Below, piece by piece: positions 53,395-61,219 of a stretch of DNA of 64,000 nucleotides. This DNA comes from Bradyrhizobium archetypum (GTDB lineage: Bacteria > Pseudomonadota > Alphaproteobacteria > Rhizobiales > Xanthobacteraceae): NCBI RefSeq assembly GCF_013114835.1, contig NZ_JAAVLW010000002.1, forward strand, positions 186,001 through 250,000. Reading direction: 5' to 3'. The notes beneath the pieces were generated by a model. That model was given only the letters and a program-made list of their open reading frames with translations. It had not been told where the DNA came from and ran no database searches. The position numbers and the translations under genes were made by a program. How positions within the stretch are numbered: position 1 is the stretch's first letter; each line of letters begins with the position of its first letter.

Positions 53395-54483
53395 TTACGT
53401 CACTGCGATTGGCGCACCTCGAGGCACGCTGGATTGGTCCGCCACGTTGCTCTTGTTCAGTTTCTGATTGACGATCTGGACCGTGCGGTCGATTTCGGCA
53501 TTGGGGACGCCAAGCTGATGCGAAATCAGCTTCACCAGGAGATCGACGCGCTCGATGGAAGCCGCGCCACCCGCGACCGCCCGCGCCGCCGAGGAGGGCC
53601 TGAGAAGGCTTTCGGCTGCCTTGGCGTATTTCTCGAAAGGCACCTGATCCGTGGGATCGGCGCCCAGACGCTGGGCGATGCCATCGACATGGTCATAGAT
53701 AGATTGCGAGAGAATGATATCGCCGTGCACCGCGTCGCGGATCGATCGCGGCTCCTCCGGCGTGATGCAGCGGTAATTGCCGGTCAACAGCATCGACCAT
53801 TTGGCCAGAGGGACGAACATCGAATCGAACACTTTGAGCTTCACCGGGACGTCCTGGCCCTCCAGCTTCACGGCATCGATATCGGCTTCCAGCTCCCGAA
53901 GCAGCAGGTTGTGTTTGTCATCCGCAAAAGGCGCTGCCTTGAAGTTGGTCGGCAGGCCGACATGAAGAACATTTGCCGCCTCTTCCGGTGGACGGAACGC
54001 CTGCGGATCGGGAGAGCAGAGCGACACGAGGCCCGGCTCGAACCGTTCCCATACCTCGGCGTTGGTATAGGCCTCCTCCAGATCCATTTTCGCCAGCGCC
54101 GGAATCCGTTTGAGATAGGGCAGGGGCGGCATGTTCATGATCGAAAGGCAAGGCAGCTTCGCCTCGGCGATTTTGATCATCAGAAGCTGGATCGCATGGT
54201 TGGTGTATTGCGGCTCCTGCATCGCTAGACCAACCAGATCATAGCGGGAAGGATCGACGTCGGCGGGCTCGACCGCGTCCAAAATCCCAGGCAGGTCGCG
54301 CGACAAGATCGGACGGTGGGCCGCCTCGCCGCGCAGCTTGATGCGAACTTCGGTGCCGTCGCGATTGATAAGCTCTGCCGTCTGCTTCCGGCACACCAGG
54401 GTCACGTTGTGAGCCGCCATCAAGAGCTTAGTCGCCAGCAATGAGCCATACGAGGCTCCAAGGATCAGAATGTTGCGCGCCAT
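53395..54483 (-). CDS. Ketopantoate-reductase-like NAD(P)-binding protein
   Basis: A 362-residue protein. GGGAGGG precedes ATG 54483; a start 12 codons upstream is possible but basic. The Rossmann motif is ARNILILGASYGSLLATKLL followed by NVTLVCRKQTAELINRDG, as in ApbA/PanE ketopantoate reductases and opine-type dehydrogenases. The helical C-terminal domain keeps a Lys/Asn-rich active-site-like segment (VPLAKWSMLLTGNYRCI). The protein is longer than PanE (about 300), so a different 2-oxo acid or imine substrate is likely. It stands upstream of no obvious partner. Confidence 0.65.
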   Translation of the reverse strand: MARNILILGASYGSLLATKLLMAAHNVTLVCRKQTAELINRDGTEVRIKLRGEAAHRPILSRDLPGILDAVEPADVDPSRYDLVGLAMQEPQYTNHAIQLLMIKIAEAKLPCLSIMNMPPLPYLKRIPALAKMDLEEAYTNAEVWERFEPGLVSLCSPDPQAFRPPEEAANVLHVGLPTNFKAAPFADDKHNLLLRELEADIDAVKLEGQDVPVKLKVFDSMFVPLAKWSMLLTGNYRCITPEEPRSIRDAVHGDIILSQSIYDHVDGIAQRLGADPTDQVPFEKYAKAAESLLRPSSAARAVAGGAASIERVDLLVKLISHQLGVPNAEIDRTVQIVNQKLNKSNVADQSSVPRGAPIAVT

Positions 54484-54640
54484 GCGCCCTCCCACAGATG
54501 ATGTTTTCCGGCGCGCCACTATTCGGGCGCGGATTTGCCAGCGCCTGCTTTGCGACAGGAGTTAAGCCGAATATTGCGGTGTGACCCCGCCTTCCCTGGG
54601 AGTGCGCCCGGGGAATGCCGGCGAAGTTCGAGGCGACCGG

Positions 54641-55072
54641 TCAGGCCGACGCGGCCAGCTTGAAGGGCGTCGCTTCGTCGTCAAACGCGGTCGTGATGTC
54701 GCGAATGCTGATGACACCGATCAGGCTGTAATTGTCGATCACCGGCACATGGCGGATGTGATGCTTGCTCATGAGGTGACGGACATGCTCGAGCGTATCC
54801 GTCGAGGTGCAGGAGACGAGCTGCTGCACCGAAATGAATTGCGAAACGCGCATGTTCACGCCGGCGGCGCCATACTGGGCAATCGCGCGAACCACATCAC
54901 GCTCGGTGAACATCCCGACGGCGGTATTGCCTTCGGTGCGGACGACATCCTTGACGACAAGCGCGCTGATATTGCCCGAGCGCATCAGTTGCGCGGCAAT
55001 GGCGACGGTCTCGTTCATGCGGACCGTTGCGACACGGGCGGCTTTCTTGCGCAGGATATCTCCGACTTGCAT
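54641..55072 (-). CDS. CBS-pair domain protein
   Basis: A 143-residue protein made almost entirely of two CBS motifs (MQVGDILRKKAARVATVRMN ... GMFTERDVVRAIAQYG, then VSQFISVQQLVSCTSTDTLE ... IGVISIRDITTAFDD). Such pairs bind AMP, ATP or SAM and sense energy state. AAGGAGG precedes ATG 55072. An operator-like 17-mer shared with three other sites in this locus lies 35 bases upstream of the start. It follows the OxlT-like gene on the same strand, and CBS proteins often accompany oxalate genes in this group (recollection). Confidence 0.9.
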   Translation of the reverse strand: MQVGDILRKKAARVATVRMNETVAIAAQLMRSGNISALVVKDVVRTEGNTAVGMFTERDVVRAIAQYGAAGVNMRVSQFISVQQLVSCTSTDTLEHVRHLMSKHHIRHVPVIDNYSLIGVISIRDITTAFDDEATPFKLAASA

Positions 55073-55106
55073 GGCAACCTCCTTGGGTGAATTCTTGCAT
55101 GAAGTC

Positions 55107-55123
55107 TGGTATACATAATGCCA
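55107..55123 (-). promoter_or_regulatory. Operator-like site 1 (upstream of the CBS gene)
   Basis: On the - strand the 17-mer is TGGCATTATGTATACCA, matching TGGCATnnnRTATACCA shared by four sites. TTGACA lies 2 bases before it and may be a -35 element. The partial symmetry (TGG...CCA with a TATA core) resembles operators of FadR/GntR-type repressors. Confidence 0.65.
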
Positions 55124-55287
55124 ATTGTCAACATGCGGAACGTGGAATTCTCGTGCGAGAGATCGAGATAAATAGGCAGTATTACTGACGTTTCTTGGAA
55201 GAAGGCGGCGGCATTCCCGAAAGAGGATCTCGATTTTGCCGGTTAGAAGTTGTGTCAGGTATACCAGAAGCCCCGATCGCCAAAAGA

Positions 55288-55325
55288 AAACGCGCCCACC
55301 CCGGAGAGGTGAGCGCGCCTTGTTC
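55288..55325 (-). terminator. Terminator after the OxlT-like gene
   Basis: On the - strand GCGCGCTCACC (55308-55318) pairs with GGTGGGCGCG (55291-55300) across a 7-base loop with one mismatch, followed by TTTTCTTTT. It lies 20 bases after the antiporter stop, so the CBS gene needs its own promoter, which fits operator site 1. Confidence 0.8.
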
Positions 55326-55344
55326 TTACGGTGGATCGCTGAGG

Positions 55345-56640
55345 TCAGCTTGCAATCTGCGACTTGGCGACCACGACTTTGCGCCAGGGTTTGAGCACCG
55401 CGATCGCCAGCAGCGAGGCCAGAATGTTGGCACCGGCCGCGACGATGAACACGGTGTCCCAGGTGCCCGACGATTGCTGCATGTAGTTCGCGACGGGCAC
55501 CAAGAGCGCCGCGGTGCCCTTGGCCGTGTAGAGCAGGCCGGCATTGGTGGCTGCGAACTTTGCGCCGAAGGTGTCGGTGCAGGTCGACGGGAAGAGGGAA
55601 TAGATCTCACCCCAGGCGAAGAACACGAAGCCTGACAAGAGCACGAACCAGACGGGATCGTGGCCCAGCATGTACAGGCCCCAGATGCCGATGCCTTCCA
55701 TGCCGAACGCGATGAACATGGTGTTCTCGCGGCCGATCATGTCGGAGATCCAGCCGAAGAACGGACGGGTCAGGCCATTGAGCACGCGGTCGATGGTGGC
55801 TGCGAACGTCACCGCTGTCATCGTCACCGCCATCAGCGTCACCGGCACGCTGTCGACCTTCCAGTCGACGGCGATCGGCTTGAGGTTGGCGGTCACCATC
55901 AATCCGCCGGCGCCGACGATCACGAACATGAAATACATCAGCCAGAAGATCGGCTGACGGATCACCTCCGTCGGCTGATAGTTGCGCCGGCTCTGGATCA
56001 CGTTGGCGTTCTGGGCCACCGCCGGCACTTGTCCGGCCTTCGGCGAGAACATCAGGAAGGCGAGGATGACGATGATGATGCCTTGCCCGAGACCGAAATA
56101 GAGGAAGGTGGTCTGGAATCCGGAATCCTTGATCATCGCCTGGATCGGCGCCACCGTCAGCGCCGAGCCCGCGCCAAAGCCGGCCGCCGTGATGCCGGCG
56201 GCAAGGCCGCGCTTGTCGGGGAACCATTTCAGCGCGTTGCCGACGCAGGTGCCGTACACGCCACCGGCGCCGATGCCTGCGATGATCATGCCGAGATAGT
56301 AGCCGTTGAGCGTGGTTGCGTGTGCGTTGATGGCCCATCCGATGGCGCAGAGAATGCCGCCGATGAGGACGACGATGCGCGGGCCGTATTTATCGACGAA
56401 CCAACCTTCGACCGGCACCAGCCAGGTCTCGAACAGCACGAACAGCGTAAATGCCCACTGGATCGACGCGCGATCCCATCCGAATTTCTTCTGGATGTCG
56501 GGGACGAAGAAAGTCCAGCCATATTGGTAATTGGCGATCATCACCATCGCGAGCACGCCGATGGCCAATTGCGTCCAGCGGTAGGTGTCGCTGACGCGGG
56601 CCGCCACAGGGGCCGCCGCTCCGTGCACAGTGTCCGTCAT
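55345..56640 (-). CDS. oxlT: Oxalate/formate antiporter-like MFS transporter (OFA family)
   Basis: A 431-residue inner-membrane transporter with 12 predicted helices. The first helices, NYQYGWTFFVPDIQKKFGW, and the segment NALKWFPDKRGLAAGITAAG with GFGAGSALTVAPIQ are the OFA-family signature (OxlT exchanges oxalate for formate). The basic residue in the C-terminal half expected for oxalate binding would be in NAGLLYTAKGTAALLVPVAN (the OxlT Lys355 region). GGAGGG precedes ATG 56640, and an operator-like site lies 52 bases upstream. Context supports oxalate: a formyl-CoA transferase remnant lies 4 kb upstream. Confidence 0.88.
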   Translation of the reverse strand: MTDTVHGAAAPVAARVSDTYRWTQLAIGVLAMVMIANYQYGWTFFVPDIQKKFGWDRASIQWAFTLFVLFETWLVPVEGWFVDKYGPRIVVLIGGILCAIGWAINAHATTLNGYYLGMIIAGIGAGGVYGTCVGNALKWFPDKRGLAAGITAAGFGAGSALTVAPIQAMIKDSGFQTTFLYFGLGQGIIIVILAFLMFSPKAGQVPAVAQNANVIQSRRNYQPTEVIRQPIFWLMYFMFVIVGAGGLMVTANLKPIAVDWKVDSVPVTLMAVTMTAVTFAATIDRVLNGLTRPFFGWISDMIGRENTMFIAFGMEGIGIWGLYMLGHDPVWFVLLSGFVFFAWGEIYSLFPSTCTDTFGAKFAATNAGLLYTAKGTAALLVPVANYMQQSSGTWDTVFIVAAGANILASLLAIAVLKPWRKVVVAKSQIAS

Positions 56641-56691
56641 CTTCCCTCCATAGGCTGTTCTATCAATACCCGACAGCTCAAGGGCGGAGTT

Positions 56692-56708
56692 TGGTATATG
56701 TTATGCCA
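56692..56708 (-). promoter_or_regulatory. Operator-like site 2 (upstream of the OxlT-like gene)
   Basis: On the - strand the 17-mer is TGGCATAACATATACCA, with TTGTCT two bases before it. It fits the shared TGGCATnnnRTATACCA pattern and has the same spacing to the TTG element as site 1. Confidence 0.65.
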
Positions 56709-56859
56709 GTAGACAAGAGAAATGTTGGTGGGTTACCACAAATCGTTTGCGCGCAGAAAATGCTGCGCGCGCGAACGAAGGGCCGTGCGTTTGATCGCAC
56801 GGCCCTTAGACAATCCAAAAATGTGTTTGATTTTATGGCGATAGACCTCTTCTTTCGCG

Positions 56860-58359
56860 CTAGGCGACTGCGCCACGCAAGCGGCTATAGCCCTGCTGGA
56901 TCACCGACCAGAACAACGCAATCAATCCGAGGACCATGATCGCGCTGACCAGCGTGTTGGAGAAGAACACGCCGAGCGAGCCCTGGGATCCCAGCAATGA
57001 TTGCCGGAAGGCCTCTTCCGCCTTGTCGCCGAGCACGATGGCGAGCACCAGCGGCGCGAGCGGATAGTTACACTTCTTGAGCAGGTAACCGATCACGCCG
57101 AACACCAGCATCAGCATCACGTCGAACGTAGAACTGTGCACCGAATAGGCGCCGATCGCGCACAGCACCAGGATCAGCGGCGCGATAATGCTGAAGGGGA
57201 CGCGGAGGATGGCCGCGAAGATCGGCACGCAGGTCAAGACGACGAGCAGGCCGACGATATTGCCGAGATACATTGAGGCGATCAGTCCCCAGACGAATTC
57301 CTTCTGCTCGACGAACAACATCGGTCCGGGCTGCAGGCCCCAGATCAGGAGGCCGCCGAGCAGCACCGCGGCGGTCGGCGAGCCCGGCACGCCGAGCGAA
57401 AGCATCGGCAGCAAGGCCGATGTGCCCGCCGCGTGCGCCGCAGTCTCCGGCGCGACCACGCCTTCGATTTCTCCCTTGCCGAAATTGCTGCCGTTCTTCG
57501 CTACGCGCTTGGCGATGCCGTAGCTCATGAACGAGGCGGGCGTTGCGCCCGCGGGCGTGACACCCATCCAGCAGCCGATCAGGCAGGAACGCAGCGATGT
57601 GATCCAGTAGGCCGGCAGCTCCTTCCACGTCTGCAGCACGACCCGCAGATTGATCTTGGCGTTGCCGCCGCGGAAGGCGAGCCCCTCTTCCATCGTCAGC
57701 AGGATCTCACCGATGCCGAACAATCCGATAACGGCGATCAGGAAGTCGAAGCCGTTCAGCAATTCGGTAAAGCCGAACGTCAGCCGCAACTGTCCGGTGA
57801 TGGAGTCGAGACCGACGGCAGCAAGCGCAAAGCCGATCATCATCGCCGCAATGGTCTTGAACGGCGGCTCCTTGCTCAATCCGACGAAGCTGCAGAACGC
57901 CAGGAAATAGACGGCAAATTTTTCCGCCGGCCCGAATTGCAGCGCAAAGCTCGCGACCAGCGGCGCAACCAGCGTGATCATGGCGACCGCGAACAAGGCG
58001 CCGACGAACGACGAGGTGAACGCCGCGGTCAAGGCTTCGCCGGCCTTGCCCTTCTGCGCCATCGGGTAGCCGTCGAACGTCGTCGCGACCGACCACGGCT
58101 CGCCGGGTATGTTGAACAGGATCGAGGTGATCGCCCCGCCGAACAGCGCGCCCCAGTAGATGCACGACAGCATGATGATGGCCGATGTCGGCGGCATGCT
58201 GAAGGTCAGTGGCAACAGGATCGCCACGCCGTTGGCGCCGCCCAGTCCGGGCAGCACACCGATCACGACGCCGAGCACGATGCCGACGATCATCACCATT
58301 ATGTTGAAGGGCTGCAGCGCGACCGCAAAGCCGTGAAACAGATTGACGAGTTCTTCCAT
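56860..58359 (-). CDS. tctA: Tripartite tricarboxylate transporter large permease TctA
   Basis: A 499-residue integral membrane protein with about 11-12 helices. The family motifs VIGVLPGLGGANGVAILLPL and GALFGGAITSILFNIPGEPW occur near the start, with an inverted-topology repeat in TPAGATPASFMSYGIAKRV and SLGVPGSPTAAVLLGGLLIW. It carries solute using the proton gradient, with TctB and the binding protein TctC. It follows tctB by 27 bases. The ribosome site is moderate (GGGG). The solute is a carboxylate by family; oxalate-related solutes are suggested by the neighbours. Confidence 0.93.
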   Translation of the reverse strand: MEELVNLFHGFAVALQPFNIMVMIVGIVLGVVIGVLPGLGGANGVAILLPLTFSMPPTSAIIMLSCIYWGALFGGAITSILFNIPGEPWSVATTFDGYPMAQKGKAGEALTAAFTSSFVGALFAVAMITLVAPLVASFALQFGPAEKFAVYFLAFCSFVGLSKEPPFKTIAAMMIGFALAAVGLDSITGQLRLTFGFTELLNGFDFLIAVIGLFGIGEILLTMEEGLAFRGGNAKINLRVVLQTWKELPAYWITSLRSCLIGCWMGVTPAGATPASFMSYGIAKRVAKNGSNFGKGEIEGVVAPETAAHAAGTSALLPMLSLGVPGSPTAAVLLGGLLIWGLQPGPMLFVEQKEFVWGLIASMYLGNIVGLLVVLTCVPIFAAILRVPFSIIAPLILVLCAIGAYSVHSSTFDVMLMLVFGVIGYLLKKCNYPLAPLVLAIVLGDKAEEAFRQSLLGSQGSLGVFFSNTLVSAIMVLGLIALFWSVIQQGYSRLRGAVA

Positions 58360-58386
58360 CCCCGTGATCCCAACCTTGCGATGAAA

Positions 58387-58884
58387 TTACAGACCGAGCC
58401 ACTCTTCGACCGGTCCCTTGGGAAGCGGGACCAGAAACCAGCGCTCGAAAATGAGATAGGTGACAATGGGCATGCCAAGCGCCACCGCCAGCACGGTGAG
58501 CCAGGGATACTTGCCGAGCCATCGCATGAACCATGCGATGAAGATCATTGAGGCGAGGTACAGCCCGGTGAACGGCATGGCGCCGACATAGATCGCGGTC
58601 GGAATGACGACGCTCATGACCTGGCGAAGCTGTCCCCATTCCGCGAACAGTTCGTCATTGTTTTCGCGAAGCCCGTTCCACAGGTTTATCGCGCTGGAGG
58701 CGACAATGAAGATGCCGATGTAGAAGGGGAAGAACCCGGCGCGCGGACCTTCCGCGCCCCAGTTGATGCCGGCCTTAAGGCTGCCGATGATAACGATCAC
58801 GCCGAAGAGGGTGATCAGCAACGTAATCCCTGTCTCCACCAGTTTGTGGGCGGGGCCGGACTTGCTTGAACTGCCTGTTGTCAT
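58387..58884 (-). CDS. tctB: Tripartite tricarboxylate transporter small permease TctB
   Basis: A 165-residue protein with four predicted helices (LLITLFGVIVIIGSLKAGIN, FFPFYIGIFIVASSAINLW and two near the C-terminus), typical of TctB. ATG 58884 follows GGGAG; a TTG one codon upstream is less likely. It sits between tctC and tctA in the usual C-B-A order. The 181-base gap to tctC contains a composite palindromic repeat that may tune expression within the operon. Confidence 0.9.
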   Translation of the reverse strand: MTTGSSSKSGPAHKLVETGITLLITLFGVIVIIGSLKAGINWGAEGPRAGFFPFYIGIFIVASSAINLWNGLRENNDELFAEWGQLRQVMSVVIPTAIYVGAMPFTGLYLASMIFIAWFMRWLGKYPWLTVLAVALGMPIVTYLIFERWFLVPLPKGPVEEWLGL

Positions 58885-58918
58885 CAAAACTCCCTGCGAG
58901 GCCGGGCCTGCGGTGCTG

Positions 58919-59018
58919 GAGCGCGATGACTATTCTTTCGAAGCATCATCGCGCTGTATCCCTTTGATTTGAGCATGATCTCTTCGGGAAAGCGGTACCC
59001 GCTTTCCGGATCATGCTC
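58919..59018. repeat. Composite palindromic repeat between tctC and tctB
   Basis: Two adjacent palindromes: AGCGCGATGA (58919-58928) with TCATCGCGCT (about 58946-58955), and GAGCATGATC (58971-58980) with GATCATGCTC (59009-59018), the latter with an inner stem around GGTACC. The arrangement matches a dispersed repeat I recall from Bradyrhizobium/Rhodopseudomonas intergenic regions. Inside an operon it may stabilise the upstream tctC message. Confidence 0.75.
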
Positions 59019-59065
59019 GAGGCCGGGCATCTATGTTGCGATCCCGGCTGCAGCCGAAGCCCCGA

Positions 59066-60079
59066 TCAGTTGCCCGTCGAGGCGAGGAAACCTGCATCCT
59101 TCATCAGCGTTTCGTGACGCTTTTCCTCGGCCTCGACCCACTTGGCGTAGTCGGCCCCGGTCAGGAAGGTCGTGTTGAAGGCGCCGCTCTTCATGAAGTC
59201 CTGCCATTCGGGCGTGGCGCGGACCTTCTTGAACAGCTCGACGTAATATTCGATCTGGTCCTTGGTCGCTCTCGGCGGCATGAAGATGCCGCGCAGCATC
59301 AGATATTCCATGTCGAGGCCCTGCGACTTGCAGGTGGGAATATCTTTCCAGCTCTTGCCGTCCGCGATCTGCTCGTCATAGGCCATCGGCTGCGCGTCGA
59401 ACACGCAGAGCGGACGCAGCTTGCCGCCGCGCCATTGCGCCACCGCCTCGATCGGATTGTTGACAGTCGAATCGAGGTGGTTGCCGACGAGCTGCACGGC
59501 GACTTCGCCGCCGCCCTTGTAGGGAATGTAGGTGAACTTGGCGCCGGTGGCCTTTTCGACCGCGACCGTGATGATCTGGTCTTCCTGCTTGGAGCCGGTG
59601 CCGCCCATCTTCATGGATCCCGGAGGCGCCGCTTTCACGGCGTCGACATACTCCTTCGCCGTCTTGTAGGGCTTCTCCGCATTCACCCACAGCACGAACT
59701 CGTCGAGCGCCAGCATCGCGACCGGCGTGAGGTCCTTCCAGGAGAATGGAATGCCGGTGGCGAGCGGGGTGGTGAAGAGGTTGGAGAGCGTGATGATGAT
59801 CTTGTGCGGGTTGCCGCCCGACGTCTTGAGGTCAAGGAAACCTTCGCCGCCGGCCCCGCCCGCCTTGTTGATGACGACGAGCGGCTGCTTCATCAGATTG
59901 TGCTTGGTGACGATGCCCTGGATCGTCCGCGCCATCTGATCGGCGCCACCGCCGGTGCCGGCAGGAACGATGAATTCGACCGGACGCACCGGCTCCCATG
60001 CCGCGGTTGCAGGAACGGAAATCCCGACCGCGCACAAGGCAGCGATTGCGCCCAACGCCGTTTGTGCTGTGTGCTTCAT
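59066..60079 (-). CDS. tctC: Tripartite tricarboxylate transporter substrate-binding protein TctC
   Basis: A 337-residue periplasmic binding protein. The signal peptide ends near VPATAAWEP. It begins with the family start RPVEFIVPAGTGGGADQMAR and has the carboxylate-loop signature VINKAGGAGGEGFLDLK plus FTYIPYKGGGEVAVQLVGNH. The segment NPIEAVAQWRGGKLRPLCVF is also typical. GGGAG precedes ATG 60079. As first gene of tctC-B-A it has a 487-base leader region containing operator-like site 3. Binding-protein genes are usually expressed above the permease genes, which the intra-operon repeat could support. Confidence 0.93.
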   Translation of the reverse strand: MKHTAQTALGAIAALCAVGISVPATAAWEPVRPVEFIVPAGTGGGADQMARTIQGIVTKHNLMKQPLVVINKAGGAGGEGFLDLKTSGGNPHKIIITLSNLFTTPLATGIPFSWKDLTPVAMLALDEFVLWVNAEKPYKTAKEYVDAVKAAPPGSMKMGGTGSKQEDQIITVAVEKATGAKFTYIPYKGGGEVAVQLVGNHLDSTVNNPIEAVAQWRGGKLRPLCVFDAQPMAYDEQIADGKSWKDIPTCKSQGLDMEYLMLRGIFMPPRATKDQIEYYVELFKKVRATPEWQDFMKSGAFNTTFLTGADYAKWVEAEEKRHETLMKDAGFLASTGN

Positions 60080-60366
60080 GTTGTTTCACTCCCATCGATT
60101 TATGGTTGCGCCGGTCTTTGCCGGCTTCTCTTTGTTGTAATGCCGCGGCGGTTGTCGTCTCCGAACGATCGTCGGGTGGGATAGTAAGAGAGGCCCGTTG
60201 GCGCGGCACCCGCTTCTTTCGGCCAATTGTGGAATTGCAATACGCCGCGAAGGGAAGTCACGGGACGCACCCGTGTTCCATGCCAGACCGGGCTGCCTGT
60301 CCCCGTAACGCAAGGCCGTCCCCCAAACACGCTGTTATTTAGTCGGCGCGTGGTATAGAGGCATTT

Positions 60367-60383
60367 TTGTATGCGATATGCCA
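60367..60383 (-). promoter_or_regulatory. Operator-like site 3 (upstream of tctC)
   Basis: On the - strand the 17-mer is TGGCATATCGCATACAA, a slightly degenerate match to TGGCATnnnRTATACCA. A second half-site, TGGTATA, lies on the + strand at 60351-60357, so the whole 60351-60383 stretch is flanked by TGG...CCA. It is about 290 bases before the tctC start. Confidence 0.5.
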
Positions 60384-60465
60384 GGACGCAAATCTTTATT
60401 GAAGCCGATGGGCGTTCGGGCTGATTTGTCGCAGAGGTTGGTAAAGGCGACTGCCCGCCGCAAGC

Positions 60466-60499
60466 AAAAAAATGGCCCTGGAAAACCAGGGCCTTTTTT
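60466..60499. terminator. Strong bidirectional terminator
   Basis: GGCCCTGG (60474-60481), loop AAAA, CCAGGGCC (60486-60493), flanked by seven A on the left (60466-60472) and six T on the right (60494-60499). It works on both strands. On the - strand it ends the transcript of the 45-residue gene at 60567-60704, isolating it from tctC. Confidence 0.88.
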
Positions 60500-60566
60500 C
60501 AAGTCATCGAGGGGCGGGCTATTCGCCGGATCGCGCGTATGCGCGGAAACCCCGTGTTTTCGCGGC

Positions 60567-60704
60567 TCAGAGACCGAAACGGGGCTGGTCGCCGTTGCGG
60601 ACGGCAATGCGGCTGGAGGCGATCAGCAGGCGGTCAATGGAGGCCATCAGGCGGCCAAACAGGGTGCTGGAGGGCAGGAGGCCGATCGATGCAGTCTTGG
60701 ACAT
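60567..60704 (-). CDS. Unlisted 45-residue protein in the oxalate locus
   Basis: ATG 60704 on the - strand is preceded by AGAAAGGGG. The product begins MSKTASIGLLPSSTLFGRLM, continues ASIDRLLIASSRIAVRNGDQ and ends PRFGL, stop TGA 60567-60569. It is an amphipathic helix with a polar tail and no signal peptide. It has its own full transcription unit: operator-like site 4 about 57 bases upstream and a strong terminator 68 bases downstream. That makes a real expressed gene likely despite its size. I half-recall similar tiny proteins ending RNGDLPRFGL in related genomes. The function is unknown. Confidence 0.7.
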   Translation of the reverse strand: MSKTASIGLLPSSTLFGRLMASIDRLLIASSRIAVRNGDQPRFGL

Positions 60705-60760
60705 GTATGTCCCCTTTCTTGGAGGCGGAACCATTCCGCTTCGTAATCTGGAGACAGATT

Positions 60761-60777
60761 ATGTATACCAGATGCCA
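60761..60777 (-). promoter_or_regulatory. Operator-like site 4 (upstream of the 45-residue gene)
   Basis: On the - strand the 17-mer is TGGCATCTGGTATACAT, matching TGGCATnnnRTATAC exactly, with TTGTAG just before it. It lies 57 bases before ATG 60704. Confidence 0.65.
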
Positions 60778-60778
60778 G

Positions 60779-61219
60779 CTACAACAGGCTTGTTTGCATA
60801 GCAGCAATTGTCCCGCTGCATTGCAGCAAAATTAACGAAACTGGCATTCCAGACCGAAAAAGGCCGCCGGGGGCCGGCGGCCTTTGCATTCCGGGTACAA
60901 GGAAATGCGGTCCGCCCTGCCTCTGCGGCGCTCCGAGCGCGCCGGATAATTCGGTCCTTTGGGATGGAGAAACGAGCACCTGGCTCAGGATCTCATCCGG
61001 GTGCTCGCTGAACAGGAGTGAGCGGGTCGCTTCGCTCGGGCCATCCGACAGCTTGAGCGGGTTGCCAACCGAGATGTACTTGCCGCGCGTCGGATGATCG
61101 ACCTCGATCACGGTGCCGATGGTGCGCAGCGATTGGTCTTCCGCGATCTCCTTCATCGACAGGATCGGACGGCAGGGGATGTCGTCCTCGTTGAGGATTT
61201 CCATCGCCTCGAACTGGTG
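60779..61219 (-). pseudogene. frc: C-terminal remnant of formyl-CoA:oxalate CoA-transferase (frc)
   Basis: From about 61219 the - strand reads [60 protein letters not shown] and [12 protein letters not shown] (to about 60974), the unmistakable C-terminus of Frc, which starts oxalate breakdown by making oxalyl-CoA. The upstream three quarters of the gene are missing; what precedes 61219 shows no Frc sequence. Cys-Gly-Pro has become Cys-Arg-Pro. The frame then stays open through a terminator hairpin to 60779, so the original stop is lost. Confidence 0.85.
60862..60885 (-). terminator. Terminator of the former frc gene
   Basis: GGCCGCCGG and CCGGCGGCC form a 9-bp stem with a GGG loop (about 60862-60882). 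On the - strand it is followed by TTTTT. It lies about 90 bases beyond the last recognisable Frc residue and presumably ended that operon. Confidence 0.75.

What the first reader, a model, noticed from the sequence alone, without database searches (positions are those of the whole stretch)
55107..60777. Four copies of a 17-bp operator-like motif in one 6-kb locus
TGGCATnnnRTATACCA-type sites lie upstream of the CBS gene (55107), the OxlT-like gene (56692), tctC (60367, weaker) and the 45-residue gene (60761), all in the same orientation as their gene. Three have a TTG-containing hexamer immediately before. A further GGTATACC palindrome lies at about 55258-55265. This defines a local regulon, most simply of an FCD/GntR-type regulator encoded elsewhere, and links the tct transporter and the tiny protein to oxalate use.
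Basis: partly seen in the sequence, partly recalled or inferred. Interest (0 to 1): 0.7.

Follow-up and report, generated by a model that had tools for sequence, protein, structure and literature searches.

The report
Oxalate-use operators of a GntR regulator
Short palindromic DNA switches in front of the oxalate-uptake genes of this soil bacterium also sit before the oxalate-breakdown operon of a neighbouring regulator gene and before a central-metabolism gene, so one regulator most likely controls oxalate use and the cell's succinyl-CoA supply together.

Summary
All four sites exist; the two strong ones match exactly, the two weak ones are not above chance by count but are conserved in relatives. 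The motif is a 17-bp inverted repeat, TGGYATNNNNNATRCCA. About 9 kb beyond the window end two more sites lie between a GntR/FCD regulator gene, followed by oxc and frc, and a divergent acyl-CoA ligase gene. In 36 genomes of the genus (Bradyrhizobium) the strict motif occurs 75 times, its reversed control 0 times; the 67 places I checked lie before CBS, oxlT and, unexpectedly, sucC. Sites before gntR, tctC, the 45-aa gene and a second oxlT are conserved too. At five genes the operator fills a 17-bp -35/-10 spacer, which points to repression. The regulator lies beside oxc and/or frc in 41 of 47 named relatives' loci, with an operator-like site before it in 29. In many other genera sucCD lies in the oxalate cluster; in the 11 such genomes checked the mdh-linked sucC has no operator, and one Bradyrhizobium shows the same swap. 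The 45-aa gene is under purifying selection (dN/dS 0.23). No binding or expression was tested. The kind of system is known; this regulon I did not find in print.

The parts
55107..55123 (-). operator of the CBS-domain gene, TGGCATTATGTATACCA; -35 TTGACA 55126-55131, 17-bp spacer, proposed -10 CAGACT 55103-55108
   Evidence: site in 30 of 30 orthologous promoters, TTG at -8 in 30 of 30
56692..56708 (-). operator of oxlT, TGGCATAACATATACCA; -35 TTGTCT 56711-56716, proposed -10 CAAACT 56688-56693
   Evidence: site in 31 of 31, TTG at -8 in 31 of 31
60367..60383 (-). operator of tctC(BA), TGGCATATCGCATACAA; -35 TTGCGT 60386-60391, proposed -10 AAAAAT 60363-60368
   Evidence: site in 14 of 15 hits, the fifteenth being by its coordinates the unrelated second tctC of the window; TTG at -8 in 12 of 14
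60761..60777 (-). weak operator of the 45-aa gene, TGGCATCTGGTATACAT; -35 TTGTAG 60779-60784, 17-bp spacer, proposed -10 TAATCT 60756-60761
   Evidence: site at 2 mismatches or fewer in 34 of 34; TTG at -7 in 18 of 34, T-any-G in 33, A and T at the -10 positions in 31
55255..55267 (-). conserved half-operator CTGGTATACCTGA between oxlT and the CBS promoter; no full site here
   Evidence: all 9 aligned intervals
54641..55072 (-). CBS-domain protein, 143 aa
   Evidence: PF00571
55345..56640 (-). oxlT, oxalate/formate MFS antiporter, 431 aa
   Evidence: TIGR04259, 653.8 bits against cut-off 335
56860..58359 (-). tctA
   Evidence: PF01970
58387..58887 (-). tctB
   Evidence: PF07331
59066..60079 (-). 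tctC, substrate-binding protein
   Evidence: PF03401
60567..60704 (-). 45-aa protein without a known family, under purifying selection; one helix predicted
   Evidence: (37 orthologs, all 45 aa, dN/dS 0.229); no Pfam or NCBIfam match

Best explanation
The sites are operators of one GntR-family (FCD-domain) transcription factor whose gene heads the gntR-oxc-frc operon about 9 kb to the right of the window. A dimer binds the 17-bp inverted repeat TGGYATNNNNNATRCCA. At the CBS, oxlT, tctC and 45-aa genes the operator fills the -35/-10 spacer of a sigma-70 type promoter, so binding should block RNA polymerase. The regulator also controls its own operon, the divergent acyl-CoA ligase gene and, in this genus, sucC of the mdh-suc operon. 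When oxalate or a product of it is present the repressor lets go, and uptake (OxlT, perhaps Tct), breakdown (Oxc, Frc) and CoA activation (SucCD, the acyl-CoA ligase) rise together; SucCD would supply succinyl-CoA that starts or sustains oxalyl-CoA formation. Shown here: the sites, their conservation, the promoter geometry and the linkage to the regulator. Inferred: binding, repression, the inducer, the role of SucCD.
For: Two sites flank the gntR/acs promoter region beside gntR-oxc-frc. Genus: 75 strict matches in 36 genomes, reversed control 0; 275 in 146 genomes, control 0 in each. By coordinates 67 of the 75 fall in stretches I annotated, all before CBS, oxlT or sucC. Site within 450 bp upstream of gntR 35 of 35, CBS 30 of 30, oxlT 31 of 31, second oxlT 21 of 21, tctC 14 of 15 (the other is the unrelated second tctC), 45-aa gene 34 of 34; oxc 0 of 32, frc 0 of 35, tctB 0 of 14. 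TTG at -8 in 30 of 30, 31 of 31, 21 of 21 and 12 of 14, A and T at the two -10 positions in 30, 31, 21 and 11, and in 31 of 34 for the 45-aa gene one base over. Sites before gntR in 27 of 28 family loci and 29 of 47 named loci, where oxc and/or frc stand beside it in 41 of 47. mdh-sucC site in 34 of 35 genus genomes and 4 of 4 of another genus. gntR in 144 of 146 genus genomes.
Against: No binding, footprint or expression data; inducer unknown. FadR-subfamily operators usually have 2-3 nt between GT and AC (PMC4494728, passages read); here it is 9. In 18 of 47 named loci no site at one mismatch or fewer lies within 700 bp before gntR, among them the Paraburkholderia, Caballeronia and Cupriavidus loci. 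In 3 of 7 loci of other families of the order (L196, L197, L199) the gene behind gntR is only 25-30% identical to oxc, so it is not oxc. tctA has 2-mismatch matches in 8 of 14, inside tctB, which I take as inherited chance. A B. diazoefficiens arabinose proteome paper lists Frc and Oxc as raised, but its main text has no match to 'succin' or 'CBS' (PMC5996035). E. coli YfdE and UctC made no detectable product from succinyl-CoA and oxalate (PMC3720670), which speaks against the SucCD step if this Frc behaves alike.
Confidence: 0.82

Rival explanations
1. The same GntR regulator binds these sites but activates, or does both, rather than repressing.
For: Regulators of this family with either sign are known: GlcC is described as an activator and GlcR as a repressor in PMC11323563 (passages). 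The sucC and acs sites do not have the fixed TTG spacing.
Against: At five gene classes the operator overlaps the spacer and the start of the -10 element with a fixed -35 position, the usual place of a blocking repressor.
Confidence: 0.15
2. The motif is the promoter of an alternative sigma factor rather than an operator.
For: TTG lies at a fixed distance before the site in the CBS, oxlT, second oxlT and most tctC promoters.
Against: The motif is an inverted repeat; before acs and sucC it stands at other distances from any TTG; it flanks the gntR gene itself in 35 of 35 loci.
Confidence: 0.04
3. The oxalate sites belong to this regulator, but the mdh-sucC site is read by another regulator with a similar operator.
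For: The genome has 14 further matches to the regulator protein at E 0.001 or better. The sucC site centre ACCAT is the same in 30 genomes.
Against: TGGTATATGGTATGCCA differs by one base from the gntR site TGGTATTTGGTATGCCA. In 11 genomes with another sucC copy that I could check, the mdh-linked sucC has no site; in 5 of 18 cluster stretches a site stands just before the cluster sucC. G015 shows the swap within the genus.
Confidence: 0.2
4. The four sites are chance resemblances.
For: At 2 mismatches the window has 6 matches against 4.3 expected, so the two weak sites alone would not stand out.
Against: Conservation at the orthologous promoters examined and 75 against 0 in 36 genomes.
Confidence: 0.01

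Closest known systems
GntR family, FCD (FadR/VanR) regulators with solved structures: PmiR (7xp0/7xp1), Agrobacterium Atu1419/VanR (6z74), TM0439 (3sxy)
   Same: Winged helix plus FCD domain; best solved sequence relatives and among the best fold matches
   Different: 23-27% identical in the fold alignments listed; operator arms further apart than the usual FadR-type motif; none of them is named as an oxalate regulator there
GlcR of Paracoccus denitrificans (PMC11323563, passages)
   Same: GntR/FadR-subfamily repressor, in an alphaproteobacterium, of a neighbouring two-carbon pathway (glycolate oxidase), encoded beside its target
   Different: Another target pathway; sequence relation not tested here
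NanR-type operators (direct repeats TGGTATAW, cited in PMC4494728, passages)
   Same: Same TGGTAT half-site; the gntR, acs and sucC sites also contain it as a direct repeat with a 7-base period
   Different: Here the feature shared by all sites is an inverted repeat with a 5-base centre
oxc-frc-oxlT oxalate degradation system (PMC12927642, PMC4926349, passages)
   Same: Same enzymes and antiporter
   Different: Adds a conserved regulator with defined operators, a tct transporter, a CBS protein, a 45-aa protein and sucCD/acyl-CoA ligase

Membership tests
GntR family, FCD (FadR/VanR) subfamily regulator | N-terminal GntR winged helix (PF00392) | tested here: met
   47.6 bits against cut-off 27
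GntR family, FCD (FadR/VanR) subfamily regulator | C-terminal FCD domain (PF07729) | tested here: met
   79.1 bits against cut-off 24.3; model of the B. jicamae ortholog has FCD structures as best matches
GntR family, FCD (FadR/VanR) subfamily regulator | FCD metal ligands, one Asp/Asn and three His (recalled) | tested here: met
   N177, H181, H225, H247 invariant in 17 sequences; N164, H168, H212, H234 invariant in 33. Metal binding itself not tested
GntR family, FCD (FadR/VanR) subfamily regulator | Usual operator TKGT..ACMA with 2-3 nt between GT and AC (usual, not defining: NanR and BioR are named exceptions in PMC4494728) | tested here: not met
   TGGYATNNNNNATRCCA has 9 nt between GT and AC, by inspection of the sites
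Oxalate regulon of this regulator | Operator in the promoter of the regulator's own operon with oxc and frc | tested here: met
   35 of 35 genus loci; the operon shares that promoter, no separate site before oxc (0 of 32) or frc (0 of 35)
Oxalate regulon of this regulator | Direct binding and oxalate-dependent expression | not testable with these tools
   needs gel shift or footprint and transcript data

The most novel reading that the evidence does not exclude
A pathway regulator has captured a housekeeping TCA-cycle operon. In Bradyrhizobium and another genus of the family the oxalate GntR operator sits in the mdh-sucC gap, so succinate-CoA ligase is made on demand for oxalate activation. 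Other lineages instead keep a sucCD copy inside the oxalate cluster, in part with the operator, and one Bradyrhizobium (G015) has switched from the first solution to the second, losing the site at the housekeeping gene. Operator capture and a dedicated gene copy are thus interchangeable answers to the same need for CoA.
Probability: 0.5. Interest if true: 0.65.

Novelty: new member of a known kind. Interest (0 to 1): 0.5.

Why it matters
It gives oxalate use in rhizobia and many other Proteobacteria a candidate regulator with a defined operator and a short list of targets, testable with one gel shift and one deletion strain. It places a tct transporter, a CBS protein and a conserved 45-aa protein in oxalate use. 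It also suggests how a side pathway commands part of the TCA cycle, with a natural swap (operator capture against dedicated gene copy) that can be followed in the phylogeny.

Tried and rejected
Sigma-54 promoter (TGGCAT resembles a -24 element): rejected by eye; no GC at the -12 position, and the motif is an inverted repeat. Alternative sigma factor: rejected because of the other spacing at acs and sucC. Other exact palindromic sites of the own genome, C5:76406 and C34:129549, and the one-mismatch site C1:308317, which lies behind the 3' end of a bioA-like gene: conservation not followed, no claim made. Full operator at 55258: only a conserved half-site. Co-absence of regulator and sucC site within the genus: not informative, as the regulator is in 144 of 146 genomes. 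A published oxalate regulator: the listings (titles and abstract beginnings) named none; CstR of Methylobacterium extorquens (PMC13344952, passages) is a CheY-like response regulator, and the passages have no GntR or oxc. Koch 2014 is not held; Schneider 2012 I did not try to open; most subscription papers are not held. Structure of the 45-aa protein: one helix, residues 11-35 of the 44 folded (first Met left out), mean pLDDT 77.4 from 3 sequences; no function follows.
Full report
Observation. At 55107 and 56692 the match to TGGCATNNNRTATACCA is exact; at 60367 and 60761 it has 2 mismatches. The genome of 7.02 Mb (the window is G000:C2:186001-250000) has 3 exact matches. In the palindromic form TGGYATNNNNNATRCCA the window has 2 exact and 1 one-mismatch site; 40 random windows gave a mean of 0.3 one-mismatch sites and no exact one; at 2 mismatches there are 6 against 4.3. 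The weak sites are believable only through conservation, which they have.

Genes. Minus strand, in order of transcription: the 45-aa gene, tctC, tctB, tctA, oxlT (TIGR04259), CBS gene. Upstream of the 45-aa gene lies a 3' remnant of frc (part of TIGR03253).

The regulator. Further sites of the genome include two at C2:259228 and C2:259309, 81 bases apart and about 9 kb beyond the window end. They stand between a GntR gene with an FCD domain, followed by oxc and frc, and a divergent gene for an acyl-CoA ligase with SucCD-like domains.

Conservation in the genus. The genus is Bradyrhizobium: contig C120 of G001, same genus as the window genome, has the length (202,473) and the regulator place of B. 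jicamae PAC68. In 36 genus genomes the strict motif occurs 75 times and the reversed control 0 times. Thirty of the 75 are the 17-mer TGGCATACCATATACCA; 28 of these I fetched and found between mdh and sucC, 2 (G014, G016) were not fetched. One is before a second sucCD in G015. The other 44 have the centres of CBS or oxlT sites, and by coordinates 38 of them fall in stretches annotated. In 146 genomes there are 275 matches and no control match in any; 4 genomes have none; the list of places was cut. Best site at 2 mismatches or fewer within 450 bp upstream (40 fetched genus stretches plus the two own ones): gntR 35 of 35, CBS 30 of 30, oxlT 31 of 31, second oxlT 21 of 21, 45-aa gene 34 of 34, tctC 14 of 15, the fifteenth being by its coordinates the unrelated second tctC of the window. 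Internal controls: oxc 0 of 32, frc 0 of 35, tctB 0 of 14; tctA 8 of 14 at 2 mismatches, inside tctB, probably inherited chance.

Promoter geometry. In the CBS, oxlT and second-oxlT promoters TTG begins exactly 8 bases before the site in 30 of 30, 31 of 31 and 21 of 21, in tctC in 12 of 14. A 17-base spacer then puts an A and a T at the two best-kept -10 positions in 30, 31, 21 and 11 of these. The 45-aa gene has the same frame one base over: TTG at -7 in 18 of 34 and T-any-G in 33 of 34, with A and T in 31 of 34. The operator thus fills the spacer and touches the -10 box, which suggests a repressor that blocks polymerase. This is an inference from position. The acs and sucC sites have other positions.

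Beyond the genus. In the family sample 98 of 119 genomes have a gntR relative at E 1e-50 or better: a close group (74% identity or more) and a wide group near 50%. Of 28 family loci looked at (L216-L243), 27 have a site at one mismatch or fewer before gntR; L241 has none. Of 7 loci from other families of the order (L196-L202), 6 have such a site within 700 bp before gntR (not L200); tct genes precede gntR in 5, oxc at 74-80% follows in 4 and frc in 4, whereas in L196, L197 and L199 the gene behind gntR is only 25-30% identical to oxc. A named scan kept the best 80 loci. In the 47 with a relative of about 43% identity or more (L320-L366), oxc and/or frc lie in the held stretch in 41, among them Rhodopseudomonas, Ancylobacter oerskovii, Bosea, Azospirillum, Methylorubrum, Roseovarius, Cupriavidus and Paraburkholderia. 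A site at one mismatch or fewer lies within 700 bp before gntR in 29 of 47; the 18 without include the Paraburkholderia, Caballeronia and Cupriavidus loci and several alphaproteobacterial ones. In L338 (Paraburkholderia) and L351 (Caballeronia) a one-mismatch site lies instead between gntR and frc or oxc.

The sucCD link. In Bradyrhizobium the operator ends 56-58 bases before sucC in the mdh-sucC gap in the genus loci measured. Of 36 genomes, 34 have it (30 strict; G001, G004 and G035 as palindromes without mismatch; G006 with one mismatch), G015 does not, and in G033 no sucC was found. Another genus of the family, g50, has it in 4 of 4. In other family genera sucCD lies in the oxalate cluster: 18 of the 20 stretches hold gntR and sucC together, but those were chosen for nearness. 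In 13 of these 18 genomes one search finds two sucC copies; in 5 (G120, G142, G081, G161, G164) the copy by gntR is the only one found. In 5 of the 18 stretches (g41, g49) a one-mismatch site stands just before that sucC; in the others none does at one mismatch or fewer. For 11 genomes with two copies I also have the mdh-linked sucC: 0 of 11 have a site, best 3 to 5 mismatches. G015 is the exception within the genus: its mdh-sucC gap has no site (best 4 mismatches), and a second sucCD, divergent from gcl, has two, one exact and one with one mismatch. Genomes of g30, g52 and g70, and some of g64 and g67, have the regulator but neither arrangement. Independent events are few: one gain shared by two genera, or two gains, and one swap.

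Why sucCD. Oxalate must be turned into oxalyl-CoA. Frc takes CoA from formyl-CoA, which must first exist, and reduction of oxalyl-CoA to glyoxylate, mentioned for methylotrophs in PMC3720670 (passages), consumes it. SucCD, or the acyl-CoA ligase that shares the gntR promoter region, could supply CoA. That Oxalobacter Frc accepts succinyl-CoA is recalled, not checked; for YfdE and UctC no such product was detected. This step is open.

The regulator as a protein. Best solved relatives are PmiR (7xp0/7xp1), a Brucella GntR protein (7u5q), Atu1419/VanR (6z74) and TM0439. One Asn and three His, the place of the FCD metal site (recalled), are invariant in 17 and in 33 sequences. A metal-held carboxylate such as oxalate as inducer is plausible, no more.

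The small protein. Thirty-seven orthologs are all 45 aa; pooled dN/dS is 0.229 over 281 pairs under 25% divergence, which are not independent. It is found in 35 of 60 genomes searched, all of this genus, and again in g49 and g67 clusters. G006 lacks both it and an oxlT ortholog. Its function is unknown; its promoter places it in the oxalate regulon.

Literature. The GntR survey PMC4494728 (passages) has no 'oxal' term. PMC5996035 and PMC4926349 (passages) report Frc, Oxc and the gcl set on arabinose and oxalate use by B. diazoefficiens, with no 'GntR'. PMC12927642 (passages) has no 'regulator'. PMC4842269, PMC6515984 and PMC11031950 (passages) gave nothing on this locus. PMC12686821 (passages) names panE2 as oxalyl-CoA reductase gene. 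PMC13344952 and PMC11323563 (passages) deal with a CheY-like regulator and with the glycolate repressor GlcR. From these and the listed searches I did not find the regulon in print.

Verdict. A real, conserved operator set of a GntR/FCD regulator of oxalate use; ordinary in kind, new in its particulars as far as the library shows, with an unexpected and testable extension to sucCD.

Noticed in passing
window 55168-55189 (minus strand): Block GTCAGTAATACTGCCTATTTAT with palindrome CAGTAnTACTG, about 40-60 bases upstream of the CBS -35 box, kept nearly unchanged in all 9 aligned intervals and found once in the own genome at up to 3 mismatches: perhaps a second, different control element of the CBS gene.
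   Followed up: partly
window 60779-61204 and L027:1-5299: A 3' remnant of frc (72% identical) stands before the 45-aa gene, about 8 kb from the intact frc; G019 (L148) has a 94% remnant in the same place. In 10 of 34 stretches with the 45-aa gene a full frc ends 207-235 bases before it, in others 2.6-12 kb lie between, so duplication with insertion is likely.
   Followed up: partly
L027:3330-5084: Gene with Cache, HAMP and adenylate/guanylate cyclase domains between the intact frc and the frc remnant.
   Followed up: no
L280-L288, L292, L293: A second frc-like gene (63-67% to frc) follows frc in clusters of other genera; it may be a CoA-transferase for another donor.
   Followed up: no
G000:C1:308317-308333 (L004:1501-1517): Site TGGCATCTGGTATATCA behind the 3' end of a bioA-like gene, with another GntR/FCD gene about 5 kb away (L030:14279-14914).
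   Followed up: no
L289 (G164): oxlT end, acyl-CoA ligase, sucC, sucD and a 56% gntR relative lie together, with no oxc or frc in the 8-kb stretch; this sucC is the only one found in that genome.
   Followed up: no
window 53395-54519 and L027:12701-13762: Two PanE/ApbA-like reductase genes, a weak match behind the CBS gene (TIGR00745, 19.5 bits, below cut-off) and a clear one behind the acyl-CoA ligase gene; the latter is a candidate oxalyl-CoA reductase.
   Followed up: no
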